33,962 nucleotides of DNA from Methylacidiphilum caldifontis (lineage in GTDB: Bacteria; Verrucomicrobiota; Verrucomicrobiia; Methylacidiphilales; CAMAQI01). Shown here in pieces: positions 872 through 17,972 of this stretch. Location: contig CAMAQI010000004.1 of assembly GCA_945860255.1 (NCBI GenBank), forward strand, positions 1 to 33,962, written 5' to 3'. The notes below the pieces were generated by a model, which had not been told where the DNA came from, ran no database searches, and was given only the letters and a program-made list of their open reading frames with translations. A program made the position numbers and the translations under genes. Numbering within the stretch: the first letter of the stretch is position 1; every line of letters starts with the position of its first letter.

Positions 872-1309
872 TCAATCTTTGGGAGAAAAATTATGAATCA
901 GAGGTGCTTTCTGATATTCACTTCTGTTTCTCCAAAGAACATAAATACATAATAGACTTATCAATTGCAAAGGGAAAAAATTGATTATATTAAAAGCAAC
1001 TTTTCCTGAACGAAGCATAGGAAATATGAACAAAATATATGGACTAAAGACAGTCCATACCAGAAAAATTTGAGCACAAATCCATCCTCTCTCTTTTTGT
1101 TTCCAAAACTGGATCATAATATAAATTAAAAAAAAGAGCACAGCAAAACTACCAAACGCAGGCAACATATCAGGTCTTTGAGTAACGTCTGAATTTTTTT
1201 GAAAAGGAATAAAATAGTTCCAGAGGAGAACCAACATCCCCACATGATGCATTGAATTACATACAATCCACAAAAGAATTAAAAATTTCGTTATTTTTTT
1301 ATAACTCAT
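872..1309 (-). CDS. Small polytopic membrane protein (about 4 TM) immediately downstream of rhs; candidate immunity/accessory protein
   Basis: The ORF 872..1417 overlaps the rhs 3' end. The internal Met (MSYKKITKFLILLWIV...) at 1309 sits 5 nt after the rhs stop. Four hydrophobic segments. Confidence 0.55.
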   Translation of the reverse strand: MSYKKITKFLILLWIVCNSMHHVGMLVLLWNYFIPFQKNSDVTQRPDMLPAFGSFAVLFFLIYIMIQFWKQKERGWICAQIFLVWTVFSPYILFIFPMLRSGKVAFNIINFFPLQLISLLCIYVLWRNRSEYQKAPLIHNFSPKD

Positions 1310-1709
1310 ATATCTATCTAAATGATTGGCTGAAATTATTTCTAGCAGAATCGAACGTCCTTGAACTATAATCATACCATCTTTGAGCATTGTCATGTAA
1401 ACCTTGACCTGGATCACCTCCTAAATTATTTAAAGCTTCCCCAGCTTTTCCTGCTAAGCTTAACGGTAGACCAGCTTTTTCCATTCCAGGATGTCCAGTG
1501 TTCATTAATCCTTCTCCCATTCCAGAAAGGAGGTCTGCCCCACTAGTAAGCCCATCAACTCCATACCCCAAACCATCACTCCCTAAACCGAACCCAAGTC
1601 CCAAACCAGCGTTTGCCAAATCCCATAGCCCACTACCTAATTCACCAAACTCATTGGCTAATGACGGAATAAGTACACCAAGCATTTCTAAAAGACTTTG
1701 ATCAGATGG

Positions 1710-1736
1710 ATCATCATCGTCATCATCATCGTCATC
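1710..1736 (-). repeat. GAT/GAC trinucleotide tract encoding Asp9 just after the Rhs core
   Basis: Minus strand GAT GAC GAT GAT GAT GAC GAT GAT GAT directly after ...DPMGLC. Confidence 0.9.
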
Positions 1737-4700
1737 ACATAACCCCATAGGATCTGTATGTGTGTTCACTCGATTCCCGCAATACCGATAAATATTCACA
1801 TCCCCTGCTGAAAACCTGATGGGATCGGTTTGAAGAAAACGCCCCAATTCCTGTGAATAAACCCGATTTCGATAATCGTAGAGTCCGACCTCTTTGAGAA
1901 ACTCACGACCGGTGAACATGAAGCGGTTGCTGTACGAGCTTGTAGCACGTAGCTGTTGGCTGGTAGCTCCAGAAATTGAGGCTTTTCCAAAGATGTCGTA
2001 GGAGTACTTTTCCACGACAGTTCCCGTTGCGTTGGTGAGAAGTGTCGTCGATCCCAGCCCATCTTGATGATAGTAGACTGCGCCCGTCGTTGTCGTCTTT
2101 GCAAGGATTTCATCGATGTTCGTTCCATGAACGTATCGAGCAGATACCGAGCCTGTCGAGGTGCGCTCCTCAATCAGCGACCATCCATCGTAAATCAAGA
2201 ACGTTGGAACTCCGTTGAGGGTTCTTTTCACGACGCGGTTCTTGGAGTCATACGCAAACTCCATGGTGTTTGCTCCAACCGTGGCTTTTGTCAGACGATT
2301 TTGCGCATCATAAAAGAACAAACCACTTTGGATCGTTCCGCCATTGATGAGGTTCCCGTTGGAATCATACCCCAGATTTGTCACCGCAGAGGACGCAGAG
2401 GTCACAGAGGAATACTGGTTTAGATTGTTGGCAGAATACGTGGAGGTTTGACCGTTATCAATGACGGTGGTTCGATTACCGGTGGCATCGTAATTATAAT
2501 TCACGGACCGCGTGGGAGCGGTCCCTCCCGTGTAGGAGGCGCTAGTCACCTGATCGATGGCATCAAAACCATAGGTCTCGATCTTTGAATCTTGTGCTTT
2601 TGCAGTTCGGTTGCCCACAGCGTTCAAAGTATAAGCCGTTGCCAGGAGCGTTGTCGCTCCTTTTTTATCGGTGATGGAAGTTAAACGGCTCGCATCATCA
2701 AAGAGGTAGCTGGTCGATGTTCCATTTTCTAAGTTCTTAGTAATCCGGGCTCCATTCAAATCATAGGCATAGCTTACCATTGGTGCTCCGCCATCTTCAT
2801 AGATTGCTGAGATTTGGTTGCGGTTCGTGTAGTCATAGCTGATCACATTTCCACCGGGATAGATCACCGAGGCTCGATTACCATCGACAGTATAGGAGTA
2901 GGTCAGTGTTCGTGTTTGACCTGAAACTGTGGTGCTTTCGCTCAGAAGTTCATTAGCAACGTTATAGGAGTAGGATATTGCCGAAACCCCGTTGTTGCTA
3001 GTGAGCAATCGACCGAGATTATCGAAAGTTCTCGATACATCAGGAGTGCTATCAGACCAATCGCTAAGGGTTTCCCGATTGCGATTATCAAAGGTCGAGG
3101 TTTTCACTTGCCCTGCTCTCGTGGTATAGGTCACGAGATTGGAGACTGCATCATACCCATATTGTTCTTTTGAATAATCAGGATAAATCATCGAAGTCTT
3201 ACGATTGAGCAGATCAAAGGTGTTTTGATAGGCATTATTTTTCGCATCGACCATTTTCACCATGTTCCCCGCAAAATCGTAAAAGAAAGTCGTGGTTTGA
3301 TTCTTCGCATCGGTCGAAGTCAAGAGTCGATTCATTGAATCATAGGTATTGGTTGTGACTCGATTCAATGCATCTTTTGATGTGAGAACATTTCCCTCAA
3401 AATCATAGGTCCATGAAGTGAGATTTCCGAGCGGATCTTTTTCGGTAAGCTTACGATTTCGGCTGTCATAAGTCATCGTCGTGATTTTCCCACGCGGATC
3501 TTTTGAGGTGAGAAGGTTATTCACCTTGTCGTACGTGTAGGTCGTCACCGCAGCGTCAGAGGTTCCAAATCCGACCGTTTGGGTCAGCAAATTCCATTCT
3601 TTATCATAGGTGAAAACGGTTTTCTTTCCGCTGGGAAGCGTGATGGAAAGGGGTTGATCGTGATAGGTGTCAACAAGGTAAGTCGTCACGGTCGAACGAT
3701 TGAGTTCATCCGTGACTTTCGTGACTCGGTTAAAAACATCATATTCATATTGACTGATATTTCCGAGTTCGTTGGTGATGCTTAAAACTCGACCATATTT
3801 GTTATAGGTATAACTTTTAAATGAACCGTCGGGATTTGTGGTCTTCAAGATCAATCCTCGTTCGTTGTAAACGTAGCTCGTCACATTGTTGCGGGCATCG
3901 GTGATGCTGGCTAAACGATCATTGAGATCATAGCCAAACTTCGTGATGTTCCCCAAGGCATCGGTGCTTTGAGTGAGAAGTCCCCGGGCATCGAAGGCAA
4001 AGTTTTGAACTCCTGCGTTGCGTTGACGTTTTTGAGTGACTTGCGAGAAGGAATTGTAATCAAAGGTCTCGTAGGAGGCATCAGGATAATCGATTCGGGT
4101 GATTCGATTCTGAGCATCACGAGTGTAGCTGGTGACACGTCCCAAACGATCGGTGTAGGTTAAGATCGAATCCAAGGAGTTTCGAGTCCAGGATTCAAAA
4201 CTGCCGTCAGGATAGGCAATTTTTTGCTTATTTCCTGCAATTGTCCACACATAGGAGGTGACTCTTGCAAGGGCATCGGTTTCCGTGGCAATAAACCCGT
4301 CTGAACCGAAGGTATAACTTGTTTTATTTCCGTTTAAATCAAACCGTCCCGTCATCGCAATCGTGGTGCGGCCCGTTGGATAATTCATCTCCTGAACTTC
4401 CACACCTCCGTTGGCATACGTAACGCTCGGTTTATGAAGATTATTTCCAAAAACACCGATCGAGAGGATCTTATTGCCTGTCTCCAAATTTACTTGTGAA
4501 TCAACCATTCCTAAGACGGCAGACGTTAAATTACTTTGATAAACGGTTTTATAGCGATTTTGTCTCAATCCATAACGAGCATCATCCCATTCAACGACCA
4601 GTGGACGTTGACCAGAAAATGCTTGACCATACTTATACGTGGTGGTCGTTCCATCTCCATAGCTTACAGAGGTCATCGTTGGAAAAATATAAGGAACTGT

Positions 4701-4814
4701 TGTATCGTTAAAATTCGTATAGTTATAAGTCAACGATCTTCCATCGCTGGTCTCAACCTTTGAAATCGCACTAATAGAAAGAGGGGCCTGATTAGCTGCT
4801 TGAAGTCGAGGAGC

Positions 4815-5141
4815 ATTGGTTGCCCAAGTAGTCGGCTTTTGAAGAGCCTCTTTACCAACAACACTTAAAAACCGTACTTTACCGATTTTTTTGGCTGTTC
4901 CTAAATCGAATCCAACAAAGGAACCGGATTTTGTTGAGGAGACAAAACCAGTTGTTGGATCTCCATCAAATGCCTTGCTCGCCTCTGCGAGTGCGTCAGG
5001 AGAAATGACTGTTCCTGATAGTTTGTTTCCAAGATCATCATAAAATTCAACCTCAGCGATGTTTCCAAAAGAGCCATCGGCCTGTAAAAGCCGTACATAT
5101 CGATACGCCGTCGTGGAGGTTGAAAGAATTTCAACCCAAGC
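4815..5141 (-). other. Discoidin/F5-8-type-C-like (galactose-binding-like) insert within the Rhs protein
   Basis: Encodes AWVEILSTSTTAYRYVRLLQADGSFGNIAEVEFYDDLGNKLSGT...ASKAFDGDPTTGFVSSTKSGSFVGFDLGTAKKIGKVRFLS, resembling discoidin-like folds (RYVRL, EVEFYD, AFDGDPTT, VGFDLG). Confidence 0.65.
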
Positions 5142-5697
5142 TCCCGTGGTAGGAAGCGTAGTGGATGTTCCAAATGATCCAAAATCAACCCTGTTTCCTG
5201 AAAGGGTAGAATAAGTGACTTTAAAAAATCGTCCCGCCGGTTCAATCACTTTAGTGACTTGTCGTGAGGAGTTATATTCAACGGTGTAATTATTTCCTGC
5301 CGAATCGGTGATCCTCGTCATTAAGTAATAAGGGGTTGTTCCTGAAAGAAATTGTTTGAAAAGATAACGACTGGCATCCGCTCTTTGGAGAATAAAATCA
5401 GTTCCTGAAGGAAGGAGCCGATCGGTGACCGTTCCATTCGCCGCCCATTCTGTAGGAGAAATTTTAGAGAAAGAATAAATGGCACCGTCAGGGTAAACCA
5501 CCGACATTTGCTCTCTTCCCAATGAATCGTTGGCGGCTTTGAAAAATTCCCACTGAAAGCCATGCCTCCAATAATGCCCCATTCCAAAGAGACTTGATCC
5601 GGGAGTCGATCTCGAATTACTATGACGAGTCCAGTTCATCTGCAGATTTCCCACTGAACCCCAAAGCGGTAATTCTTCGATCTCTCGAAATTCATTT

Positions 5698-5703
5698 CCT
5701 GAA
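5698..5703. repeat. Target-site duplication CCTGAA (left copy)
   Basis: Identical to 8953-8958 and adjacent to the TGT terminus. Confidence 0.88.
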
Positions 5704-5819
5704 TGTTATTTCCCACGAATAGATCGTAAGAACGCTTTGATTTGGAACGTATCTGGGATGGAGTGTGAGGAGAAAGAGGTGGCGTTAATTTGGTAAAGGA
5801 TTGATTAAGGGATGGATTC

Positions 5820-5889
5820 CCCTGCTCCGTGAGGAGCTGGAAGGAGCGAAGGCTTTGCGAAGCGACTGGAAGCGACGAGCGGAGCAGGG
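5820..5889. repeat. GC-rich structured region with terminal inverted repeat ccctgctccg/cggagcaggg
   Basis: ccctgctccg (5820-5829) pairs with cggagcaggg (5880-5889). A nested gctcc-gtga-ggagc hairpin lies inside. Confidence 0.6.
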
Positions 5890-5967
5890 ACGGCGGACGC
5901 CCTCCCCGCTTTTGGTTTTTGGGGTTTTAGGTGGTGATTTTTTTATTTTCCCCTCCACAAGGGCGGG

Positions 5968-6525
5968 ATGTTCGAGATTAAATGGTATGTGGAAGATGAA
6001 AGCGCTTATGACTCTTACTCCCGGGATTTGAAGCACATCGGATGTCCGTTTTGTCGGGGGATCGGGAATTTGAATCGGCATGGGGTTTTAAAAGGCTTTG
6101 GGGATGAGCAAAAACGCCAAGAAGAAGTGGTCCGGGGTTTTCGGGTCTTTTGCTCGAATCGGGGAAACCGACAAGGCTGCGGCAAGACCCACAGCGTACT
6201 GTTGGCGAAATATCTTTATCGTCACTCTGTCCAGACCCGGGAAGTGGGTTTGTTTTTCAAGGGATTGCTTGAAGGAAAATCGCTCGAGCGATCATGGTAC
6301 GACTCGGTGCGCTTTTTTTGCGTGGAGACGGGACGGGCGATCTGGAGGAAATTTTCAAGAACTCATCTAACAATCCGCTCACGGCTTTTTAAAAAGCAAA
6401 ATATCTCCTCTCAGAAAGAACCTCGGCTTGTGACTTGGGAGGGAATACAGTCGCTTTTTAAATCAAACGATCCAGTGCGGGACTATCAGCTTTATTTTCA
6501 GCGGGCTTTTTTCTCCTCAGGTTAG
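5968..6525 (+). CDS. Transposon-associated zinc-ribbon protein (DUF6431-like)
   Basis: 185 aa with CPFC...GNLNRHG...FCSNRGNRQGCGKTHSVLLAKYLYRHS: paired Cys motifs followed by a C-terminal helical region. First gene in the element, upstream of the DDE transposase. Confidence 0.6.
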   Translation: MFEIKWYVEDESAYDSYSRDLKHIGCPFCRGIGNLNRHGVLKGFGDEQKRQEEVVRGFRVFCSNRGNRQGCGKTHSVLLAKYLYRHSVQTREVGLFFKGLLEGKSLERSWYDSVRFFCVETGRAIWRKFSRTHLTIRSRLFKKQNISSQKEPRLVTWEGIQSLFKSNDPVRDYQLYFQRAFFSSG

Positions 6526-6571
6526 GATTTGGGATCGTAGCAATCCGCCCCCTTTGGAGTGGAATCTTGCG

Positions 6572-6607
6572 ACCACAGTTGCTTGTGGTTCCCGTCGGTT
6601 TTTTCTT
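6572..6607 (+). terminator. Hairpin plus T-rich run between the Zn-ribbon gene and the transposase (attenuator/terminator candidate)
   Basis: ACCACA-gttgct-TGTGGT followed by cccgtcggttttttcttttttg. Confidence 0.35.
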
Positions 6608-6627
6608 TTTTGTAAGTTGCCGATCTT

Positions 6628-7866
6628 ATGAAAAACCCAACCCCTTATTTAAAGATGCGGGTGTTGGGAGCGGTGGAAACCTCTCCCGGAAACACTCGAA
6701 GAGCCCGAATTGAATATGTCTCCAAACTCCCCTTCACCGATGAAGAGGGAAACGTCCGCTATTTTACCTGGCGAACGATTCAGACCTGGTGGAGTCGTTA
6801 TCAAAAGGATGGAATCACCGTGATGCAAAACAAGCGTCGTTCGGATCAAGGCACCTTTCGCAAGGTGACTCCTGAAACCGTGACCGAAGCGGTGCAGCAG
6901 GTGTTGCCTTCGCTGCATTCCAAAAGCTACACGATTGCCTCCATCTATCGGCTTTGTATCGAGCGAGGGCTTTTGCGAAGAGAGCTCATCGCTCCGAACA
7001 CTTTTCGGCGGATGGTCTATGAATTTGAGATGCTCAAAATGGAAAGTGAGCATAAGAGACGGGTGGCTTTTGCCAAGGAGCACGCCAATCAGATGTGGCA
7101 AGGGGATACGATGTTTGGTCCCTATATCGATACCGATTCGGGAAAAGTTCAGGCGAAGTTAATCGCCTTTATCGATGATGCCTCCCGTGTGGTTGCGCAT
7201 GGTGAATTTTTTCTCTCGGACAATGTCGATTCATTAATTACCTCGTTTCGAACGGCTCTCTATAAGCGGGGAGTTCCTGAAATGCTCTATTTGGATAATG
7301 GAGCAAATTACTCCTCGGCTGAAATCCATCTGGTTTGCGACAGGCTCGGTTGCCTCCTTTGTCACACCCCGGTACGGGATGGAGCGGCCAAAGGTAAAAT
7401 CGAGCGATTTTTTCGTACGGTTCGCGACCGGTTTTTATGCAAGGTTTTAGATCTTTCCTCGCTTGAAAATCTAAATCGTCAATTTATCCAGTGGTTGGAA
7501 GAGGAATACAACTCCGTTGCTCATGGCTCTCTGGGCATGAAACCGATCGACCGCTTTGGCTTGGATTTGAGGAGGATCAAATTCCTTCCACCGTCTGAAT
7601 TAAACGATGAGTTCTTTTTTATGGAGGAAAAACGCTGGGTCAAAGTCGACAACACCTTTTCCTTAAAAAACATCCGATTTGAAGCTCCCGTCGATTTACG
7701 TGAAAAACAAATCGAGGTTCGTTTTGAGCGGGGCAAAATAGGACGCGCTGTCGTCTATTACAAAAAAGAGCGGATGGGAGAGGCTCGACCGGTCGATTTG
7801 ATCGCAAACGATCGCTCTCCTCGCCTCAAAAACAATGAAAACAACAACTCCGGAGAAAATGTATGA
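6628..7866 (+). CDS. DDE-type integrase/transposase (rve catalytic core)
   Basis: 412 aa with catalytic triad WQGDTMFG (D), LYLDNGANY (D) and KGKIERFF (E), spacing D-35-E. N-terminal HTH-like region. Confidence 0.9.
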   Translation: MKNPTPYLKMRVLGAVETSPGNTRRARIEYVSKLPFTDEEGNVRYFTWRTIQTWWSRYQKDGITVMQNKRRSDQGTFRKVTPETVTEAVQQVLPSLHSKSYTIASIYRLCIERGLLRRELIAPNTFRRMVYEFEMLKMESEHKRRVAFAKEHANQMWQGDTMFGPYIDTDSGKVQAKLIAFIDDASRVVAHGEFFLSDNVDSLITSFRTALYKRGVPEMLYLDNGANYSSAEIHLVCDRLGCLLCHTPVRDGAAKGKIERFFRTVRDRFLCKVLDLSSLENLNRQFIQWLEEEYNSVAHGSLGMKPIDRFGLDLRRIKFLPPSELNDEFFFMEEKRWVKVDNTFSLKNIRFEAPVDLREKQIEVRFERGKIGRAVVYYKKERMGEARPVDLIANDRSPRLKNNENNNSGENV

Positions 7867-8699
7867 TCCGATCTTACTTTGGCATCACTTCCAATCCCTT
7901 TGAAAAGCCCCGTCAACTCTTGGAGCATCAACAGCCGATCTTCGACACGTTGAAAGTCCATTGCCAGCAGGGAGGTTTTTGTCTGATCCTCGGACAACCC
8001 GGCATCGGTAAATCGATCTTGAAAAACCAACTTCAAAATCACGATCCCAAACGGCTTGTCACTCCGACCATTGGTCGGACGTTACACACCTACACCAATA
8101 TCCTTCGTATCCTTTGTCAGTCCTTCGGAATCGAGGATAGCGGCAACGACTTCACTTCAGAAAAAAGGCTCTTGGAGAAAGCCCTCGTCCTGAATCAAGA
8201 CGGCAAGATGCTCGCTCCGATCATTGACGACGCCCATCTGTTGGAGATCCAGGGGTTGAGGAAGTTAAGGCTCCTCTTCGAAGACTTCCCGAAGAATCAT
8301 AATTTGATTTTAATCGGGCAACCCAGTCTAATGACCAATTTGCATTTGACAGTAAATGAGGACATCAAATCCCGGATCACCTTTTCGGTCGTCATTCCGC
8401 GTTTGAACCCCGATCAGATCGAGTCGTTCCTCCTAGGTGAACTTGACTCAGTTGGCCTGCCGCATTCGACGTTTTCGGATGATGCGTTGGGACTCCTGAT
8501 TCGCTCTTCCGATGGTGTCCTACGTCGGGCTCGAAATCTGGCCCTCTCCTGTTTTATCGAAGCCGTCCGAGATCAGACAAAATCGATCGATTTAAAACAG
8601 GTGAATAAAGTTTTGATGCAGCCCCACTGGAGAGCCGATTCCGATCTGCTCTCCTCCCATCCAAACGTCACGCCGAATCATAAAAATAAGATAGGATAA
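7863..8699 (+). CDS. AAA ATPase, ExeA/TniB-like transposition protein
   Basis: 278 aa, MIRSYFGITSNPFEKP..., Walker A GQPGIGKS, Walker B LAPIIDDAH. Overlaps the transposase stop by ATGA. Confidence 0.88.
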   Translation: MIRSYFGITSNPFEKPRQLLEHQQPIFDTLKVHCQQGGFCLILGQPGIGKSILKNQLQNHDPKRLVTPTIGRTLHTYTNILRILCQSFGIEDSGNDFTSEKRLLEKALVLNQDGKMLAPIIDDAHLLEIQGLRKLRLLFEDFPKNHNLILIGQPSLMTNLHLTVNEDIKSRITFSVVIPRLNPDQIESFLLGELDSVGLPHSTFSDDALGLLIRSSDGVLRRARNLALSCFIEAVRDQTKSIDLKQVNKVLMQPHWRADSDLLSSHPNVTPNHKNKIG

Positions 8700-8705
8700 A
8701 TAAAA

Positions 8706-8752
8706 AACGCCTTGGATCCGGTACCGCACGTGCGGGACGGAACCAAGGCGTT
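8706..8752. terminator. Strong hairpin, probable bidirectional intrinsic terminator after the ATPase gene
   Basis: aacgccttggatccg-gta-ccgcacgtgcgg-ga-cggaaccaaggcgtt: ~15-bp outer stem with one A/A mismatch, an inner 12-nt perfect palindrome, then ttcaatttttt. Confidence 0.75.
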
Positions 8753-8840
8753 CAATTTTTTACGATCAGAAAGTTGAAAAAAAGACCGATTAAAACTTCA
8801 ACTACTCATAGGCAAAAATACCAACCGGATCATAATCCTT

Positions 8841-8931
8841 AAAAACTGTACGACACGGTTGGGAAAAACTTACCGTCTCAAATATGGAAACACTCAAAAA
8901 CGCTACGATCTAAATTTTGAAAAACGCTACT
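8841..8931. repeat. Four sub-terminal direct repeats AAAAAC(N)1-2TAC at the transposon right end (putative transposase binding sites)
   Basis: aaaaactgtacg at 8841, aaaaacttaccg at 8864, aaaaacgctacg at 8896, aaaaacgctact at 8920; spacing 23, 32 and 24 nt. Confidence 0.7.
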
Positions 8932-8952
8932 ATGCTAAATAAATTTTTCACA

Positions 8953-8958
8953 CCTGAA
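8953..8958. repeat. Target-site duplication CCTGAA (right copy)
   Basis: Identical to 5698-5703 and adjacent to the ACA terminus. Confidence 0.88.
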
Positions 8959-9152
8959 TAAGCCACCACGGGATCACCAGACTTAGGATCTGGAGTAGGT
9001 GGAGGATTAGTGGGAGGGGTTGGTTGAGGAGTAGGGCCACCGCCGCCGCTCGTTCCGCCCCCCTGACCGTTTCCACATTGAGCCAAGGAAAAGTCTGCGC
9101 CCACGAAAAAAACCAATAATGCCAATAATATCAATCTCTTTATATTTTTCAT
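8953..9152 (-). pseudogene. 5' fragment of the rhs gene: signal peptide, Gly/Pro-rich linker and DPVVAYSG, cut by the transposon
   Basis: MKNIKRLILLALLVFFVGADFSLAQCGNGQGGG...TPDPKSGDPVVAYSG. The last ~14 codons of the track ORF (8910..9152) are transposon-end sequence. Confidence 0.9.
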
Positions 9153-9176
9153 AAATTTTCCAATCTTTGTTTTAAA

Positions 9177-9827
9177 CTATGATCCCTTGCGACTCTGCAT
9201 CTCTGGTCCTACCCAAAAATCGAGTCGTTTCTCGTCAAACCCTTTTCGTACCGTTACCCGATAAATTCCATCGCTTTGCGCTGTTTTAAAATCAAAGCCA
9301 ATTTGCCTCGATGCATCGAGTTTCCCTTGAGCAACGATCTCTCCTTGATTGAGATGTCCCCCATCCTCAGCCTGGATCACTATGGGATCTTCGGGAGTTC
9401 CCTCCGGATAGGAAACGACGATTTTTACTGTTTCATTCACTCCCAATAAAATCCGTGGAAAATAGCCAATTTCGTTGGGGTTTAAGGCGAACTCCTTGCC
9501 TTTTACAATCACTGTCGCCAATGCTGGGGTTCCCCCAATCTCGGAGGTCGCTGCCGCTCCGGTTCCCGTCGGAAGCGTGGAGATTGTTGAGGATCGGAAT
9601 AAATTCGCTTTGGACGCTGGTGTCGTTTGAGGGGATTGCGTCGATTGTGGGGTTACTGAAGCGCTTAGTGAAGAATCAGTAGCGGTTGGGCTTGAAGATT
9701 GTTTTTCGACCGTCGATGCGTTTGATGACATCGGCTGATTTGAGTGGGATCGAAAGAAGAAAACGGAAAGCAATCCCACGCTAAAGAGCGAGACGGCACT
9801 TAAAACTACTATTTTCCTCTTATTCAT
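9177..9827 (-). CDS. Membrane-anchored/secreted protein with Ser/Thr-rich linker, upstream of rhs in the same operon
   Basis: Likely start is the internal Met MNKRKIVVLSAVSLFSVGLLSVFFF (9827). The gene ends 24 nt before the rhs start. Upstream codons in the 302-aa ORF run through a C14 tract and look non-coding. Confidence 0.65.
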   Translation of the reverse strand: MNKRKIVVLSAVSLFSVGLLSVFFFRSHSNQPMSSNASTVEKQSSSPTATDSSLSASVTPQSTQSPQTTPASKANLFRSSTISTLPTGTGAAATSEIGGTPALATVIVKGKEFALNPNEIGYFPRILLGVNETVKIVVSYPEGTPEDPIVIQAEDGGHLNQGEIVAQGKLDASRQIGFDFKTAQSDGIYRVTVRKGFDEKRLDFWVGPEMQSRKGS

Positions 9828-9845
9828 GCCGAGGAAATACCCTAA

Positions 9846-9859
9846 GGGGGGGGGGGGGG
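9846..9859. repeat. G14 homopolymer (C14 on the coding strand) upstream of the 9827 start codon
   Basis: cctaagggggggggggggggcgtc: 14 consecutive G at 9846-9859. Confidence 0.9.
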
Positions 9860-10021
9860 CGTCAATTAAAATTGAAAATAATTTTGCAACTTTTGCGTGA
9901 CGGTCTGTGACGGTTAGGCGCAATAGCCTCATAGCAAATGAGCGGAGGCTCTCCAATTTCTTTCCCAAATTAATTTCGTTATCGCGCAGGGAGTGCGTGG
10001 AAATGTTTAAATGGTTTCTCC

Positions 10022-11221
10022 TTAAAGGCCCCTCATTGAACTCGCCACGGCGGTTCCGGCGGCATAGCCGGAGGCCCAAGCCCATTGAAAATTGTAGCCG
10101 CCGAGATGCCCGGTGACATCTAATGCCTCACCTATAAAATAGAGTCCGGGAACCGTTCGACTCTCCATCGTTTTTGAGGAGATCGCCACGGTATCAATTC
10201 CCCCTACGGTCACTTCTGCTTTAGGATAGCCTTCGGTTCCGCTCGGGATCAATTTCCAATGATTCAGTTCTGTCCCAATTTCTCGAAGTCGACGACTGCC
10301 AATCTGCCCCATCGGAGCGGTTATCTTCAGTCGTTCTACCCAAGCCTTAGCTAATCGAGCCGGTAACTGACTCCCCAGGACGGTCGAGAGTTGTGTTCGC
10401 TCTTGCTGTTTTTCCGCTAACCACTCGGCGGCATTCAGCCCTGGGAGGAGATCGATTTCAATTTCCTCTCCCGGTTTTGCATAGGAGGAGATTTGCAAAG
10501 CGGCAGGTCCGCTAAGTCCCCGATGGGTGAAAAGCAGGTCATCCAAGAAAAACTGTTTCCCGTGCGAGATTTTAACGGGAAGTGATAATCCGGAAAGGTC
10601 GCACATCAACCGTAATTCCGGATCGGAGAAGGTGAGGGGAACTAAACCAGGAGCTGTGGTCGTTAAGGGAATTCCAAATTGTCGAGCGATTCGATAAGCA
10701 AAATCGGTCGCTCCCAATTTCGGAAAGGAGAGGGCTCCTGTGGCAATGACCAATGATTTTGCACGGTAAAGCCCTTGAGAGGTGCGAACCTCAAAACAGT
10801 CTTTTTTTTCAACCACTTCGACTGTGACACCACATTTAATGTTAACTTTCGCCGTGGCGCATTCCGACAAAAGAAGATCGACAATTTTCCGGGAGTTATC
10901 ATCGCAGAACTGTTGTCCTAGTTTTTTTTCATAATAGGCGATCTGATGTTTATTCACTAAAGAGATAAAGTCGGTCGGTCGATAACGGGCGAGTGCCGAC
11001 TTACAGAAATTAGGACTGGAGGAGAGATAGTTTTTCGGCCCTGCTCCAAGATTTGTAAAGTTACAGCGTCCCCCTCCTGAGATGAGAATCTTCATTCCCA
11101 CTCGGTCATTTCGTTCGAGAACGATCACCGATGAGCCCAGTCCCCCGGCCACCGAGGCACAGAAGAGCCCCGCAGCTCCCGCACCGATGACGAGCAGATC
11201 AGATTCTTGAATCAAGGACAT
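10022..11221 (-). CDS. FAD-dependent oxidoreductase, HI0933/YhiN family
   Basis: SDLLVIGAGAAGLFCASVAGGLGSSVIVLERNDRVGMKILISGGGRCNFTN...; C-terminal GLYFIGEALDVTGHLGGYNFQWAWASGYAAG. Likely start MSLIQESD at 11221. Confidence 0.92.
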   Translation of the reverse strand: MSLIQESDLLVIGAGAAGLFCASVAGGLGSSVIVLERNDRVGMKILISGGGRCNFTNLGAGPKNYLSSSPNFCKSALARYRPTDFISLVNKHQIAYYEKKLGQQFCDDNSRKIVDLLLSECATAKVNIKCGVTVEVVEKKDCFEVRTSQGLYRAKSLVIATGALSFPKLGATDFAYRIARQFGIPLTTTAPGLVPLTFSDPELRLMCDLSGLSLPVKISHGKQFFLDDLLFTHRGLSGPAALQISSYAKPGEEIEIDLLPGLNAAEWLAEKQQERTQLSTVLGSQLPARLAKAWVERLKITAPMGQIGSRRLREIGTELNHWKLIPSGTEGYPKAEVTVGGIDTVAISSKTMESRTVPGLYFIGEALDVTGHLGGYNFQWAWASGYAAGTAVASSMRGL

Positions 11222-11235
11222 TTTCTTGATTTGCT

Positions 11236-11463
11236 TTAAGCGGCCGATTCTTTGAGTCGATCTGCGATCCAAACTTTAATAATCGACTGTCGGGTCACCC
11301 CCAGCTTATGCGCCTCTTTATCTAGGGAGTGGATCATCCAAATAGGAAAGTCGACATTGACCCGCTTAGGAATTTGATCCGGTCTTCTCATTTTTGATAA
11401 ATGAAGATGCGACTTAATATTTTCATTATTATCAAATTTTGTATCAAGGTCTTTAGCTTTCAT
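11236..11463 (-). CDS. brnA: BrnA-like ribbon-helix-helix antitoxin
   Basis: MKAKDLDTKFDNNENI...RRPDQIPKRVNVDFPIWMIHSLDKEAHKLGVTRQSIIKVWIADRLKES: RHH fold, downstream of and overlapping the brnT-like reading frame. Confidence 0.75.
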   Translation of the reverse strand: MKAKDLDTKFDNNENIKSHLHLSKMRRPDQIPKRVNVDFPIWMIHSLDKEAHKLGVTRQSIIKVWIADRLKESAA

Positions 11464-11713
11464 ATAGTTCGACTTCCTCTTTTCTTGAGCGGCGACAAGA
11501 AATAATCCGTATCTTTTCACCACGATACGTGATAATTGCCGACCAATGTTTTTCTTTTATTTTCCCAACGATTAAAATTCTCGGTTCATCCTCCGTTTTT
11601 GCCGGGATTTCAATTCGATTTCCATCAAGCCATAGCCTTTACGCTTCGACGAAATGAATTCCATGTTTAGTCCTGTTTATTTGGCTCTTCTTTTCGTCAA
11701 ACTCAAATTCCAT
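11453..11713 (-). pseudogene. brnT: BrnT-family toxin with an in-frame premature TAA at codon 25
   Basis: Minus-strand translation from ATG 11713: MEFEFDEKKSQINRTKHGIHFVEA*RLWLDGNRIEIPAKTEDEPRILIVGKIKEKHWSAIITYRGEKIRIISCRRSRKEEVELYES*. Matches the BrnT pattern (TKHGI, HWSAIITYRGE, IRIISCRRSRKEEVELYE). The TAA lies at 11639-11641. Confidence 0.88.
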
Positions 11714-11755
11714 AATGGTATAATTAATATACCATTTCCTTAAATGATGTCTAAT

Positions 11756-12718
11756 TTATTTTCTTCTCAATAATGTTCCGGCACGAGTGAAATGACCCTC
11801 TTCAAATCCGATCGCTTTTTTAATCTGATAGTCTCTCTCCAAGGAATTCCCGGTTTTTGCAATCTCTCGATGCTGCTCGCCATCGATCAATCCCCAAACC
11901 CGAGGCCAGATCGCTTGGATCGGCACCGGATAATCACTCCCATGCACAAAGCGTTCACGAAATTCCGATTTTAAAATTCGTCGATAGGCACTGGATCGCC
12001 ACGGTAGATTGAAGGCACTGGTGTCGCCATAAAGGTTCGGATATTTCTCCATCATTCGGAAAAGAGTCGTTAATCCATCCTCATCCCAAGGGGCATTCTT
12101 CGCCGCCGAATGAGCGGCGATCACGGTGACCCCGCATTCGAGAGGAAGCTCTAAGCTGCGGGGATCTTCCCACGCTTTATTCATCACCGGAAGGGTATGC
12201 TCGCTCCCGGTATGCGGGAGAAAAGGAATGCCCGCCTCCGATAAATGGCTCCAAAATTTGGTCAGCTTACGATCACTACAATTTACATTATGAACATTCG
12301 GAAGCAGTTTTAATAATGCCGCCCCTCCCTCGATACATTTCTCCAGTTCCTCTAAAGCATCTCTTCGATGCGGATGAATCGAGACTGCAGGGATCAACTC
12401 AGGATGAAGTTTTGCCAGTTTTAAAACATGCTCATTGGGAATATGAAAGACCCCTTGATTCTCATGAACATTTCCCTGTTCATCATAGATATCATCCATC
12501 GCTAAGATCACCGCTGCATCCATGGAGGATTCTCTTACATCAAGGAGTAATTTTTGCAGGAAAATCTCATCAAGATCTCCCTTGAGCGATCCTGCGGGAA
12601 GTCCCAATTGATGAAGCATGTATTGATAGAGATAGATATGGATTCCCCGGGGACGAAGCCAGGCCCCATTTCCTGAGGAACCATTTCCGACGAGATGCAC
12701 ATGAAGATCAATTTTCAT
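11756..12718 (-). CDS. Amidohydrolase-superfamily (COG2159-like) metal-dependent hydrolase
   Basis: MKIDLHVHLVG (HxH), LLKLLPNVHNV, FLPHTGSEH, VIAAHSAA, FVHGSDYPVP. Confidence 0.85.
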   Translation of the reverse strand: MKIDLHVHLVGNGSSGNGAWLRPRGIHIYLYQYMLHQLGLPAGSLKGDLDEIFLQKLLLDVRESSMDAAVILAMDDIYDEQGNVHENQGVFHIPNEHVLKLAKLHPELIPAVSIHPHRRDALEELEKCIEGGAALLKLLPNVHNVNCSDRKLTKFWSHLSEAGIPFLPHTGSEHTLPVMNKAWEDPRSLELPLECGVTVIAAHSAAKNAPWDEDGLTTLFRMMEKYPNLYGDTSAFNLPWRSSAYRRILKSEFRERFVHGSDYPVPIQAIWPRVWGLIDGEQHREIAKTGNSLERDYQIKKAIGFEEGHFTRAGTLLRRK

Positions 12719-12729
12719 CAGTCACCAGT

Positions 12730-13851
12730 CTATCGAGAATCATACTCCACGTCCTCTCTTTTAAGCGGGGAGAGACTTGAGATAAACTCCCAGCCGATAC
12801 TCTCTTGAGCTAAACGATTTCCTGACTTGATTAAGCCTTCCACTTGATCCTCAAAGGGGTGAATCCAATCGTAAAACGAGGGGGGAGGCAGACCGTCACT
12901 ACTTCTCCAAGGTTGAGGACACTTTCTCCCATTTTGAAGGAGTTGCCTGTAGCTCCAAAGATGCGGCTTGATAATCGGAAGACCCAGATCTCCTGCAAAC
13001 CGTGAGGCTTCTTGAGGAATAACAAGACCCTGTCGATCAAGATCTCCAAAATAGAGCACTTCCCTCGCTCCGTGAAGCTCTTGAAAAAGATCCGAAAGTG
13101 AGCGAACCCCTTCGATGAAACGGTTTCCCTCTCCATAAACAACGGCACTAAACAAAGCCATCTCTTGATTCCACCGGACATAAGATTGCCAAGTAGCCGC
13201 ATTTTCAAGAACGATCACCGGTCGCTCGTTGGCTTGAAGAGGCCCCCGCTTCCAAGCAAGTGGAGAACCGATGATTTGGCAACAGAGATCCCGTTCTAAT
13301 TGCAGGCGATCGATTTTAAATAAAGAGGAGAGACTCAGAAGGTCGAGACGCTTTTCATCTCCAAAAAGTTGTAGGGAACGTTCCTTTATCGGAACCATTG
13401 GAGTCGTCGATTTCCTATTTTTAAGAAATTGATCAATTTGTTTAAGCTCTTCAAATGGGAGGTTCAAGCGGCTTTCAGGAATGAATTGAAGCGTATGGTG
13501 CCACGGAAAATCTTGAATTTGACGACTCTCCTCATGAGATGGGGGAATGAATTTAAAGATTGTTTTCCACCGCTCCTCTTCAGCAAGTGGCAGGATGACC
13601 CGATCGATCAAGTGGGGGCGATGAGCGATTGTCTTGAGGCATACCCACTGATTCGCTTCGAGCTGTCGCAACTCTCGCTCGGCATCTCCCCGTTCAATCC
13701 CACTTTGAAGACCAAGGGCCTCTAAAAATTCCTCCCAATTTCGAGAAAAGGGACGTTGTGCGATTTCACTACGAGACCCCCTATTTTTAATCCAGGCCGC
13801 AAATAGAGCTCGTCCAATAATGAATTCCGTCGGATTGAAGGAAGAAGACAT
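12730..13851 (-). CDS. jetD: Wadjet JetD-like nuclease (Toprim/Topo VI-A-like, DUF2220-type)
   Basis: Toprim motifs VIVLENAATW (E) and REVLYFGDLDRQGLVIP (DxD). Located immediately downstream of jetC. Confidence 0.85.
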   Translation of the reverse strand: MSSSFNPTEFIIGRALFAAWIKNRGSRSEIAQRPFSRNWEEFLEALGLQSGIERGDAERELRQLEANQWVCLKTIAHRPHLIDRVILPLAEEERWKTIFKFIPPSHEESRQIQDFPWHHTLQFIPESRLNLPFEELKQIDQFLKNRKSTTPMVPIKERSLQLFGDEKRLDLLSLSSLFKIDRLQLERDLCCQIIGSPLAWKRGPLQANERPVIVLENAATWQSYVRWNQEMALFSAVVYGEGNRFIEGVRSLSDLFQELHGAREVLYFGDLDRQGLVIPQEASRFAGDLGLPIIKPHLWSYRQLLQNGRKCPQPWRSSDGLPPPSFYDWIHPFEDQVEGLIKSGNRLAQESIGWEFISSLSPLKREDVEYDSR

Positions 13852-13887
13852 AAGAAGAATATCGAAGGCAAAATCGTTATCGAGAAT

Positions 13888-16800
13888 TTAAGTAAGCGCC
13901 TCCATCGCCTCGGACATTGTAGCGATCAAAGGGAGATTGGTGATTTGGGTGACATAGCCTTCCGTATCCCGTTGAATCTCTTTTTGACAAATCACCACCG
14001 TTTGCGCATGAGGAACCATGACACCGAGCCGCTCGGGAGGGAAAGCCATGACTAATTGAAGTTGAAATAAATGAGCTAATGCGAGGCAATCCTCAATGCC
14101 ATCCCCTGAAAGTTTCGAGAAAGCTTCATCCATAACAACGATACCGAGTTGCTGGGAGCGGGAGGAGGAGCGGTCGCCACGATCATAAACGCGCCGGAAA
14201 GCCGCAAGCATCGAGATGAAAAATGGAGCCTGACTCTCACCGCCGCTGAGATTTCGGCCTGATCGACTGAGGGAAATCGGCGGGGCATCAGGCTTATCGG
14301 CGGGAACCATTTCGAGATCGTAACGATGATAATTTCTGTAATCGAGAAGGCGTCGAGCACGATCGTCATTTTGATCGGAGGCATAAACTGCTTGCATGAG
14401 CGATTCCTTCGCCTGTCGCACCTCGTCATCCTGGATCCCCGACATGAGAGGGTCTGTCGCTTCAAGTCCAGAATTTAAAAGAGTCCAAAGAGCCGCATAG
14501 CCTGCGGTATCTTTTCGTTGACTGATTCGATAGCGAAATCTACCGACCGGACGACTCAGATAACGATCGAGAAGTTTGATCGTATTCTGTGCCTCCGAGA
14601 TTCGGCGATTTAGTTCATTAAGAACATTCTCTTCGAGGCGTCGTTCCCATTCACGCTTCCGATCTGCGGCGAGAAGTCGAGATTTCTCGAGTTCGACTGT
14701 GTCGAGAGTCTGAAGCCGAGAGTCCCACATTTCATTACTTTCATCTTCTGGCGAAAATGAATCCTGATATTCCGGGTGAAGGAGATACCCTTGAGAACTG
14801 CGTGAGTTTAAAAGAGCCATTCGCTCCTGTTTCCGTTTTTCACGGAATTCAACCGCTTGAATACTTGCTTCTTGCCTCGATTGGGTGATTGCGGAAAAGA
14901 TCTCAGTCCATTTTTGAAATTTCTTGCGCACTTCATTTTCTCTCTCCTGGAGCTCGGTTTCAAGTATCCCCGGAAAAGAACTCTTTAATTTTGTCAAACT
15001 TGAAAGTCTCTCAATCGTCGCCTGCTGAAGTTCAGCGATCGCCGTGGCAAGGTTATCACGAATCGGTCGTGCGCTCGTCTCAAAATGGATCCGATTGTTT
15101 CTTAAAATGCCGATCTCCTCGTTCAGATGCCGCTCTTTTTCCTCAAGTTCATGGAGGCGGGTTTGACGTGATTCACGTTCTGGAGTCATGAGAATGGCGA
15201 GGGTCTCACGAATTCGAGAAAGTTCCGCCTCCATCTCAGGCAATTGCGCCAATTCCATCGACCGATCGGGTACGGATCCATCTCCCAGACCTCCTTGTCT
15301 CCCTTGACTAATCCAAGTCTCGACATCACTCTTTTGTTGTTCAACGGCCCCCTTCTCGGCACGCAACTCAATCTGTTCCTTCTGCTTGATGGCTCTCATC
15401 CGTTGAAGCCCTTCACGCCCTAAAGTGAGTTCGACGCTAGAACCCGGTTTCAATCGATGTCGCAACGGGGTTTGTTTAAAAATCCCTTCTGGGGTGATGG
15501 CGAGATCGTGTTCAACCGATTCGAGTTCCTCAATGGTTTCGACGCATTGTATTTTTCCTAAAAGAGATTCGACATATCGCTGTGCTTGGGGATGGAGGAT
15601 CTCCACTTTATCCAAAAGCGAATTCTCCGCTGGCGGCAAGGAGGGAGAGTGATTGGCTTTCATCGGAGAAAGTTTTTCGATTTCGGAGGGATTAAGCAAC
15701 GATTCCATCTCTCGGCCGGGGGCCGTTTTTCGGAGAAGCTCAAGTGCAATTCGGTAATCACTCTCCTTTTCGACCACGAGCGCCCAACGATTCCGGCCCA
15801 AATAAAGCTCCAAGGCAGGCCACCATCGCTCTGCTTCGGGCTTCACTTCAATCAATCGGCCAAGCTGCTGAACACGATTTCCTAATTTTTTTTGAAGCGC
15901 AGTCAAAAGCGGAAAGGTGCCGGGTGCCTGACCTTTGGAGAGGTTCTCCAGATCATCTGCCAATTGGATCAACCGCTTTTCATAAGAAACGATCTGATCC
16001 CGCAGCGGAAGAGATAATCTCTCAACCTCAGTCCATATCTCGTGAAAGCGAGAGGCGAGTAGCGGAAGAGCTGATAATCGTTCAACCTCCTTTCCTGTAC
16101 GTAGCTGCGCAAGAAGTTGATCGTTAACGATCAGACCCTCTGCAAGCCCCTCCAATCGTATCGAACGCCCGTGTTTTAGCCATTGCATCCAGCGATAGTG
16201 ACGATCTTCGATTTGTTGTTGTGTCGATTTACGGACCTCAAGAAGCTGAGTTACTTTATCCTCTATATTTCGTTTTGATCGATCAAGTTCCGAGAGTTTC
16301 GCGCCATCAATATCGGATTGAATCTCAAATCGAACCCCAGCAAGGAGCTGCCGGGTCTCCTCGGACTCCTTGGCTTTCAAAGACAAAGCCATAAGCTCCT
16401 GTTCCCGTTCTGTTTCCAGACGCTTTAAGTGAGCGGCGTGCAAGTCGCGCCGTTCTTCAAGTTGAAGACATTTGAGATGATCGTGGAGATAATTAAGGAT
16501 CGACTCGTCTCGGCGCGCCCTGTGAAAAGTTTTATGATGATCGGAGATTCGCCGAAGAAAAAGTGCTTCATTTTCCTGTTTCTCCAAACGTTTGCGTGTG
16601 TCGTCATAGGCTTGCAATGCCGAACGAACTTCACGGACATCGAGAGGACTTTCCTCCAGAATGAATTCGCGAATGAATTTCTCAACATTCTCCTCAATCT
16701 CAAACGCTATCGCTTTGGGGAAAGTCCGATGGAAAGCATGTGCATCAAAATTCAAATGACGCGGAGCCGCCATCTCCTCGAGATAATCTTTCTGACGGCC

Positions 16801-17313
16801 GAACAGACTTTCATTTCCATGTTCACGTCGAAGCCATGTACGGAAATCCTCCTCAGAGAGAAGTTGCCCATCCGGGGCAATCATTGCGTAATCTAGGCGT
16901 TCAGGAATACAAAAATAAGTCGGCTTGGGCGCAGCATCAGGACTTGTGAATCCTAAACGGATTCCCCACGTTTCCCGTTGAGGAGGGTTGTTTTTATTCT
17001 CCGATTTACGTGTAAATTCCAATGCGACCAAGGTCACCCCGTTTTGACGGAGAAAATGCCGCTGACCGTTTCGAATTTGATTCGTATCTCCGAGACAATA
17101 TCCGACAAGATCTCGTCCTTGCTTATTTCCCGCCGCAGCCCGGTTAGCGCGCCAATGCTCGCCTAAAAGAACATATTGAATCAGATCAAGCAAAGCCGAC
17201 TTTCCCGTTCCAAAAGCCCCTGAAATCAAAACATTATCTTGAACATCGAAAATTTGCCGGAATCCATACCAATTTAAAGCAATGATACGAGTGAGAGAGA
17301 TTCGTTGACTCAT
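13888..17313 (-). CDS. jetC: Wadjet JetC, SMC/MukB-like ATPase
   Basis: Walker A LISGAFGTGKSALLDLIQYVLLG; long coiled coils; signature LSGGESQAPFFISMLAAF; Walker B GIVVMDEAFSKL. Start MSQRISLTRI at 17313 overlaps the jetB stop by ATGA. Confidence 0.93.
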   Translation of the reverse strand: MSQRISLTRIIALNWYGFRQIFDVQDNVLISGAFGTGKSALLDLIQYVLLGEHWRANRAAAGNKQGRDLVGYCLGDTNQIRNGQRHFLRQNGVTLVALEFTRKSENKNNPPQRETWGIRLGFTSPDAAPKPTYFCIPERLDYAMIAPDGQLLSEEDFRTWLRREHGNESLFGRQKDYLEEMAAPRHLNFDAHAFHRTFPKAIAFEIEENVEKFIREFILEESPLDVREVRSALQAYDDTRKRLEKQENEALFLRRISDHHKTFHRARRDESILNYLHDHLKCLQLEERRDLHAAHLKRLETEREQELMALSLKAKESEETRQLLAGVRFEIQSDIDGAKLSELDRSKRNIEDKVTQLLEVRKSTQQQIEDRHYRWMQWLKHGRSIRLEGLAEGLIVNDQLLAQLRTGKEVERLSALPLLASRFHEIWTEVERLSLPLRDQIVSYEKRLIQLADDLENLSKGQAPGTFPLLTALQKKLGNRVQQLGRLIEVKPEAERWWPALELYLGRNRWALVVEKESDYRIALELLRKTAPGREMESLLNPSEIEKLSPMKANHSPSLPPAENSLLDKVEILHPQAQRYVESLLGKIQCVETIEELESVEHDLAITPEGIFKQTPLRHRLKPGSSVELTLGREGLQRMRAIKQKEQIELRAEKGAVEQQKSDVETWISQGRQGGLGDGSVPDRSMELAQLPEMEAELSRIRETLAILMTPERESRQTRLHELEEKERHLNEEIGILRNNRIHFETSARPIRDNLATAIAELQQATIERLSSLTKLKSSFPGILETELQERENEVRKKFQKWTEIFSAITQSRQEASIQAVEFREKRKQERMALLNSRSSQGYLLHPEYQDSFSPEDESNEMWDSRLQTLDTVELEKSRLLAADRKREWERRLEENVLNELNRRISEAQNTIKLLDRYLSRPVGRFRYRISQRKDTAGYAALWTLLNSGLEATDPLMSGIQDDEVRQAKESLMQAVYASDQNDDRARRLLDYRNYHRYDLEMVPADKPDAPPISLSRSGRNLSGGESQAPFFISMLAAFRRVYDRGDRSSSRSQQLGIVVMDEAFSKLSGDGIEDCLALAHLFQLQLVMAFPPERLGVMVPHAQTVVICQKEIQRDTEGYVTQITNLPLIATMSEAMEALT

Positions 17314-17951
17314 TGGGGATCCTTTTTTTCCAGCATGAACTCCACAGCAGTCGATTGCAACGCAAGGACCTTTTGATCCCAAGCAGCGGCGTTCTCAAAC
17401 GGGATCACCCGCACAAGCGTCGGAAGAATTTCAATTTGCGAATGACCAAAGAGTGAGGACTCCTCATGCCATTGAATCCGCACGAGGCGACGTTGGCGGA
17501 GCTTGCTGAGCATCTCCCGGAGCTGTGCCGCCGTTGGAAGTTCAATTGCTTGAAAATAAAGCTTCAGACGTTGCCAGACCTCGTTCGCCGTGATGATCAC
17601 CGTCTCTATCGATTGCTCCATTTTAATATCGTGGTAAATACGCCAGAGTGTGAGAACCAACAAGGTCTCTGCTTTTGTGAATTGAGCCATCAACTCGCAC
17701 TCCCCAGGAACTGGACAGATTTGAAAGATCGGATGATCGGGATCGGCAATCAGTCGTAAATGCAATGGCGTAAGATACTCCGTAATCTCCGCCTGATATT
17801 CACGCCCTAGCAGATAAAGCTCTCGATCACGTCCCGAATCCCCAAATAGCGCCCCATTGGCAAGAAGTGAGGATAAAATATTAGAGATCGAAGATCGATC
17901 CTCTTCTCGAATCCGATTCCAAGTCGTAAATGTAGGCCAATGGTTAGACAT
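17310..17951 (-). CDS. jetB: Wadjet JetB (DUF4194/MksE-like)
   Basis: 213 aa winged-helix-like protein (NGALFGDSGRDRELYLLGREYQAEITEYLTPLHLRLIADPDHPIFQICP..., KAETLLVLTLWRIYHD) translationally coupled to jetC. Confidence 0.82.
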   Translation of the reverse strand: MSNHWPTFTTWNRIREEDRSSISNILSSLLANGALFGDSGRDRELYLLGREYQAEITEYLTPLHLRLIADPDHPIFQICPVPGECELMAQFTKAETLLVLTLWRIYHDIKMEQSIETVIITANEVWQRLKLYFQAIELPTAAQLREMLSKLRQRRLVRIQWHEESSLFGHSQIEILPTLVRVIPFENAAAWDQKVLALQSTAVEFMLEKKDPQ

Positions 17952-17972
17952 AAATAGTGCTTCAATGATTTA

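What the first reader, a model, noticed from the sequence alone, without database searches (positions are those of the whole stretch)
5698..8958. rhs gene split by a transposon whose exact ends and target duplication can be read, and whose excision restores the ORF
The track shows an 80-aa signal-peptide ORF (8910..9152) and a 1446-aa Rhs ORF starting at a GTG (1314..5654) as unrelated. The first ends DPVVAYSG|VKNL and the frame upstream of the second reads (H)SG|NEFREIEELPLWGS. Both junctions carry CCTGAA (5698-5703, 8953-8958), and the intervening DNA begins TGT and ends ACA. Removing 5704-8958 gives ...DPVVAYSGNEFREIEELPLWGSVGNLQMNWTRHSNSR... in a single 1528-codon frame (4584 nt). No decay is visible at either junction, consistent with a recent insertion that separates the signal peptide from the YD-repeat body.
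Basis: seen in the sequence. Interest (0 to 1): 0.78.

Follow-up and report, generated by a model that had tools for sequence, protein, structure and literature searches.

The report
Jumping gene splits secreted Rhs gene
A small, apparently undescribed three-gene transposon has landed cleanly near the start of a large secreted repeat-protein (Rhs) gene in a Methylacidiphilum-like bacterium; the insertion is real and its exact ends are confirmed by relatives, but a transposon breaking a gene is ordinary, and only the transposon family and a weak hint that it often sits at rhs genes are of wider interest.

Summary
Confirmed. Window 5704-8952 is a 3249-bp transposon (TGT...ACA) flanked by an exact 6-bp duplication, CCTGAA. 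It splits an rhs gene after about codon 64, separating the signal peptide (8959-9152, -) from the YD-repeat body (1314-5703, -). Frame arithmetic is exact. Two uninterrupted homologues (G001, same genus; G029, same order) are continuous across the point. The ends are fixed independently: the left end recurs in L003 and G024, the right end in G024 and G002, and Undibacterium copies nest in each other with a 5-bp duplication. The element encodes a four-cysteine zinc-ribbon protein, a DD(35)E transposase between IS481, IS21/IstA and TnsB, and an AAA ATPase. Low dN/dS suggests it has been functional.

No curated family covers the whole element: a new variant of transposase-plus-ATPase transposons, without TniQ, TnsA or resolvase. 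Relatives often lie in or beside rhs genes, antiparallel in 6 of 6, and one (G174) also splits a YD-repeat gene. Against 51 other transposase sites the enrichment is marginal (5/22 vs 3/51, p=0.05; 0.10 without the window), so rhs targeting remains a hypothesis. Recency, excision and activity are not shown.

The parts
5698..5703 (.). Left copy of the target-site duplication, CCTGAA
   Evidence: exact match to 8953-8958
8953..8958 (.). Right copy of the target-site duplication, CCTGAA
5704..8952 (+). Transposon, 3249 bp, TGT...ACA; one copy in this assembly
5704..5760 (+). Left end TGTTATTTCCCAC..., with a TCGTA-type putative transposase-binding site (GATCGTAAG, 5722-5730) 18 bp from the tip
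   Evidence: same tip in L003 (twice) and L103/G024; TGTAATTTCCCC in Undibacterium
5968..6525 (+). 185-aa four-cysteine zinc-ribbon protein (CPFC...LNRHG...RVFCSNR..QGCGKT), unnamed; conserved in relatives
   Evidence: no Pfam, NCBIfam or PHROG match; alignment; model pLDDT 86.5; no PDB fold match
6628..7866 (+). DD(35)E transposase, 412 aa, D160/D223/E259
   Evidence: Pfam rve 2.6e-10; invariant residues; IstA and TnsB structures
7863..8699 (+). AAA ATPase, 278 aa, TnsC/MuB/IstB-like partner of the transposase
   Evidence: AAA_22 1.3e-12; PHROG 'DNA transposition protein' 9e-15; Walker A GQPGIGKS and Walker B IIDDAH read in the sequence
8706..8752 (.). Inverted repeat (stem 15 nt, 93%) after the ATPase gene, possible transcription terminator
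   Evidence: I4; self-match
8846..8952 (+). Right end with GCTACGA-type putative binding sites (8847, 8902, 8926), tip ...TTTTTCACA
   Evidence: 50-nt spacing from site to tip identical in L103; decayed copy in G002 C153 ends ...AAGTTTTTAACA
8959..9152 (-). 5' piece of the rhs gene: signal peptide and the residues up to SGDPVVAYS; now read as part of an 80-aa ORF (8910-9152) ending inside the right end
1314..5703 (-). 3' piece of the rhs gene: YD-repeat body and Rhs-associated core; annotated start is an internal GTG at 5654
   Evidence: RHS_repeat 4.2e-68, Rhs_assc_core 3.7e-17
9177..10085 (-). 302-aa gene upstream of rhs, also upstream of the intact rhs in G001 (27% identity over 218 columns)

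Best explanation
A transposon of the DDE-transposase-plus-AAA-ATPase kind inserted once into a single rhs gene of this genome. Inferred mechanism: the transposase binds the GCTACGA-type repeats near both ends, pairs them and joins the ACA-3' ends to staggered positions in the target; the ATPase selects or activates the target; filling of the 6-nt gaps left CCTGAA on both sides. The 185-aa zinc-ribbon protein is a conserved third component, most likely DNA-binding. The insertion cut a secreted Rhs protein between its signal peptide (about 64 residues) and its YD-repeat body, almost certainly inactivating its export. Shown: boundaries, duplication, frame, uninterrupted homologues, gene content, conservation. 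Inferred: order of catalytic steps, role of each protein, loss of function. Not shown: when it happened, whether it moves now, whether empty-site cells exist.
For: Exact 6-bp duplication and TGT/ACA tips. Left end shared with L003 and G024; right end at the same distance from its CTACGA sites in G024 and in a decayed G002 copy...AACA right tips in many relatives. Undibacterium plasmid copies nest with a 5-bp duplication and the same tip types. Uninterrupted rhs in G001 and G029. All nine RHS-repeat matches of G000 lie in C4, as listed for the best of them, so this is the only rhs locus found. dN/dS against L003 is 0.10, 0.07 and 0.04 for the three genes. The profile of the transposase matches IstA and TnsB structures.
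Against: The terminal inverted repeat is very short (TGT plus scattered matches). Most relatives show no perfect duplication, so the window copy is the cleanest case. One assembly only, a metagenome-type draft of 244 contigs; no reads to exclude a mixed population.
Confidence: 0.94

Rival explanations
1. The element prefers rhs and other polymorphic-toxin genes as targets, antiparallel to them, with the zinc-ribbon protein or the ATPase as selector.
For: Relatives at rhs loci: L008 (1.1 kb), L105/G010 (0.4 kb, with a pre-toxin domain on the other side), Undibacterium pUKW01 (0 bp), L150/G458 (1.05 kb), plus G174 where both flanks are YD-repeat coding. All six including the window are antiparallel. 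A second Undibacterium array ends about 43 bp from an SMI1-type immunity gene that follows a HINT toxin gene.
Against: Against 51 other transposase sites in partly the same genomes: 5/22 vs 3/51, p=0.049; without the ascertained window 4/21 vs 3/51, p=0.10. rhs genes attract insertions generally. Many relatives have no rhs nearby. GCTACGAT-like sites are not significantly enriched in the window (26 found, 18 expected, 6 of 100 shuffles as many).
Confidence: 0.2
2. The two rhs pieces are unrelated ORFs and the repeat CCTGAA is chance.
For: Six-base repeats are common; the 80-aa ORF has its own stop.
Against: Both pieces align to adjoining parts of one protein in G001 with no gap at the junction; the tips are conserved in other genomes.
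Confidence: 0.01
3. The insertion is a programmed or reversible switch that separates and restores the signal peptide.
For: Removing the element plus one duplication would be exactly in frame.
Against: Chance of keeping frame is 1/3, and any precise excision restores any target. No recombinase or excision gene is present; the transposase lineage is not known for precise excision (own knowledge). G001 has the gene without the element.
Confidence: 0.02

Closest known systems
Tn7/Tn5053/Tn552-like transposons (TnsB plus TnsC core)
   Same: DDE transposase with AAA ATPase, TGT/ACA tips, arrays of about 20-bp subterminal repeats as described for Tn7, Tn5090, Tn5053 and Tn552 (PMC8649781)
   Different: No TniQ/TnsD, TnsA or resolvase; 412-aa transposase; 6-bp (here) or 5-bp (Undibacterium) duplication; a zinc-ribbon third protein without a curated family
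IS21 family (IstA/IstB)
   Same: Two-gene transposase and ATPase layout; profile matches IstA structures 8q4d/8b4h
   Different: NCBIfam IS21 score 46.7 against a cut-off of 160; extra zinc-ribbon gene
IS481 family
   Same: Best NCBIfam match of the transposase (4.4e-40); most IS481 elements make 6-bp duplications (PMC10045372)
   Different: Score 138 against a cut-off of 224; IS481 elements have no ATPase partner (own knowledge)
Unnamed Undibacterium sp. KW1 element on pUKW01
   Same: Same three genes in the same order, transposase 50% identical, TGTAATTTCCCC left tip, AACA right tip
   Different: Extra 62-aa ORF; one copy has transposase and ATPase in one frame

Membership tests
Tn7-like (TnsB/TnsC) transposons | TnsB-type DDE transposase | tested here: met
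   rve domain, invariant D160/D223/E259, TnsB structures at 1e-7 with the profile
Tn7-like (TnsB/TnsC) transposons | TnsC-type AAA ATPase next to the transposase | tested here: met
   AAA_22 and PHROG 'DNA transposition protein'; no PDB sequence match by itself
Tn7-like (TnsB/TnsC) transposons | TniQ/TnsD target selector | tested here: not met
   The only other gene is the 185-aa zinc-ribbon protein, without any Pfam or NCBIfam match
Tn7-like (TnsB/TnsC) transposons | Arrays of transposase-binding repeats at both ends | tested here: inconclusive
   Three or more CTACGA-type sites at the right end, one clear site at the left; binding not testable
Tn7-like (TnsB/TnsC) transposons | 5-bp target duplication | tested here: inconclusive
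   6 bp in the window, 5 bp in Undibacterium
IS481 | Transposase above the curated score | tested here: not met
   138 bits, cut-off 224
IS481 | Transposase as the only gene | tested here: not met
   Three genes, the set recurring in relatives
IS21 | Transposase above the curated score | tested here: not met
   46.7 bits, cut-off 160
IS21 | IstB-type ATPase | tested here: not met
   Matches AAA_22, no IstB model
Rhs/YD-repeat protein (target gene) | RHS repeats and Rhs-associated core | tested here: met
Rhs polymorphic toxin (target gene) | Recognised C-terminal toxin domain | tested here: not met
   No domain after residue 1305 in Pfam or NCBIfam; tip is a glycine-rich tail

The most novel reading that the evidence does not exclude
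A family of transposase-plus-ATPase transposons with a new zinc-ribbon target selector that homes to rhs/polymorphic-toxin genes in one orientation, repeatedly breaking or displacing toxin loci.
Probability: 0.15. Interest if true: 0.65.

Novelty: new variant of a known kind. Interest (0 to 1): 0.33.

Why it matters
The insertion itself is an ordinary event with unusually clean edges. The element is a compact, apparently unnamed lineage joining an IS481-like transposase to a TnsC-like ATPase and an uncharacterised zinc-ribbon protein, found in several Verrucomicrobiota and one Undibacterium plasmid. If the third protein selects targets, it would be a selector unlike TniQ, and rhs loci would be a natural place to look. 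It also corrects an annotation in which one split gene appears as two unrelated ORFs.

Tried and rejected
Chance repeat and unrelated ORFs: rejected by G001 and G029. Programmed excision: no recombinase, no support. Motif-guided targeting (YD codons TACGAC/TACGAT resemble the element's GCTACGA sites): density 2.5 per kb in the window rhs against 1.6 in the rest, and the shuffle test was not significant; left as an idea. rhs enrichment: first looked strong, became marginal after a control of 51 transposase sites. Caveats on that control: my local RHS profile was trained partly on the family's own rhs neighbours, the controls come from overlapping but not identical genomes, and the thresholds were not fixed beforehand. 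Fold search of the zinc-ribbon protein: no solved relative. Rfam: nothing in the window. IMG/VR: no relatives. GenBank phages: no DNA match. Literature: no paper found on rhs-targeting transposons or on this element.

Full report
Observation. The finding is correct to the base. Reading the window gives CCTGAA at 5698-5703 and at 8953-8958, with 3249 bp between them that begin TGT and end ACA. On the minus strand the 80-aa ORF 8910-9152 ends ...SGDPVVAYSG|VKNLFSIVAFFKI*, its last residues being coded by the transposon's right end, and the frame upstream of the 1446-aa ORF's GTG reads HSGNEFREIEELPLWGS. Counting gives 194 + 4390 = 4584 nt, 1528 codons. I did not build the joined gene; the pieces were searched apart.

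Target. A same-genus genome (G001) has an uninterrupted gene of 1273 codons whose start reads ...DKGDPVNIYTGNESKEVIDLQVFGS; the two window pieces align to adjoining parts of it with no residue gained or lost at the junction. A second genome of the order (G029) reads ANPFNVYTGNVTRESLDLQVWGSVG in one frame. The gene upstream of rhs is also shared with G001. The listed RHS-repeat matches of the window's genome all lie in this locus. The protein carries RHS repeats and the Rhs-associated core, but no recognised toxin domain at its tip.

Ends. The left tip TGTTATTTCCCAC recurs in L003, a relative annotated Methylacidiphilum sp. Phi (twice), and in G024, where it interrupts a different gene. At the right end, in G024 the last CTACGA sites stand at the same distance (50 nt) from a terminal ACA as in the window, and a decayed copy in G002 ends ...AAGTTTTTAACA. 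Right tips ending AACA occur in many further relatives. On the Undibacterium plasmid pUKW01 one copy sits inside the ATPase gene of another with a 5-bp duplication GCGAA, left tip TGTAATTTCCCC and right tip AACA. The boundaries therefore do not rest on the window alone.

Element. Three genes in one direction: a 185-aa protein with four conserved cysteines (CPxC ... CSNR..R.GCG.T) and no family match; a 412-aa DDE transposase with invariant D160, D223, E259, closest in curated models to IS481 but below cut-off and, as a profile, matching IstA and TnsB structures; and a 278-aa AAA ATPase. AlphaFold gives the zinc-ribbon protein a confident model (pLDDT 86.5) with no solved relative. dN/dS against L003 is 0.04-0.10, so the genes were under selection since the two copies parted. 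Only one copy is in the window's assembly.

Mechanism. By analogy with Mu, Tn7 and IS21 (established knowledge; arrays of about 20-bp subterminal sites as in PMC8649781), the transposase would bind the repeats, pair the ends and join them to the target, with the ATPase choosing or licensing it; 6-nt gap filling gives the duplication. With no TnsA-like nuclease, copying transposition with cointegrates is likely, which would fit the self-nested arrays and the lack of duplications in most relatives (inference). Precise excision is not expected.

rhs neighbourhood. Flanks of relatives unexpectedly held rhs genes: L008, G010, G458 and the Undibacterium plasmid by profile, and G174, where translated flanks on both sides are YD-repeat coding (Pfam 3.5e-4, below the curated cut-off). 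In all six cases, window included, element and rhs are antiparallel. A control of 51 flanks of other transposases gave 3 with rhs against 5 of 22 for the family (one-sided Fisher p=0.049; 4/21, p=0.10, without the window, which was noticed because of its rhs). At a looser threshold the counts were 6 and 3. The profile was partly trained on these same neighbours and the thresholds were not preset, so I treat this as a lead.

Verdict. Observation confirmed and interpretation supported, without proof of recency or excision. The event is ordinary; the transposon is a new variant of a known kind.

Noticed in passing
window 12730-19457 (-): A complete-looking Wadjet defence operon: JetD (12730-13851), JetC (13888-17382), JetB (17310-17951) and JetA (17973-19457) by PADLOC models.
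   Followed up: partly
L003 231-3345: In the Methylacidiphilum sp. Phi contig a second left end follows directly after the ATPase stop codon, in the same orientation; the two left ends differ in sequence, so it looks like a nested or tandem copy.
   Followed up: partly
window 5968-8699 against L003: Synonymous divergence rises along the element: 0.26 in the zinc-ribbon gene, 0.53 in the transposase, 1.8 in the ATPase, suggesting a mosaic of two elements.
   Followed up: no
L129 (Undibacterium pUKW01) 6341-13700: Three copies or partial copies nested in one another, all in one orientation, ending about 43 bp from an SMI1-type immunity gene next to a HINT toxin gene.
   Followed up: partly
L107 4989-7049 and L008 1695-3800: Transposase and ATPase lie in one open frame; in Undibacterium this comes from a 1-bp shorter G-run than in sister copies.
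   Followed up: partly
L130, L150, L151 after the ATPase gene: Relatives carry a fourth small ORF (pattern GNAIDFYTKVLG.SF..AM in L150) that the window element lacks.
   Followed up: no
window 5820-5900: GC-rich inverted-repeat-like stretch (CCCTGCTCCG...CGGAGCAGGG) between the left end and the first gene; no Rfam match.
   Followed up: no
window 872-1417 (-): 181-aa hydrophobic ORF overlapping the 3' end of rhs, possibly an immunity or membrane protein; no family match.
   Followed up: no
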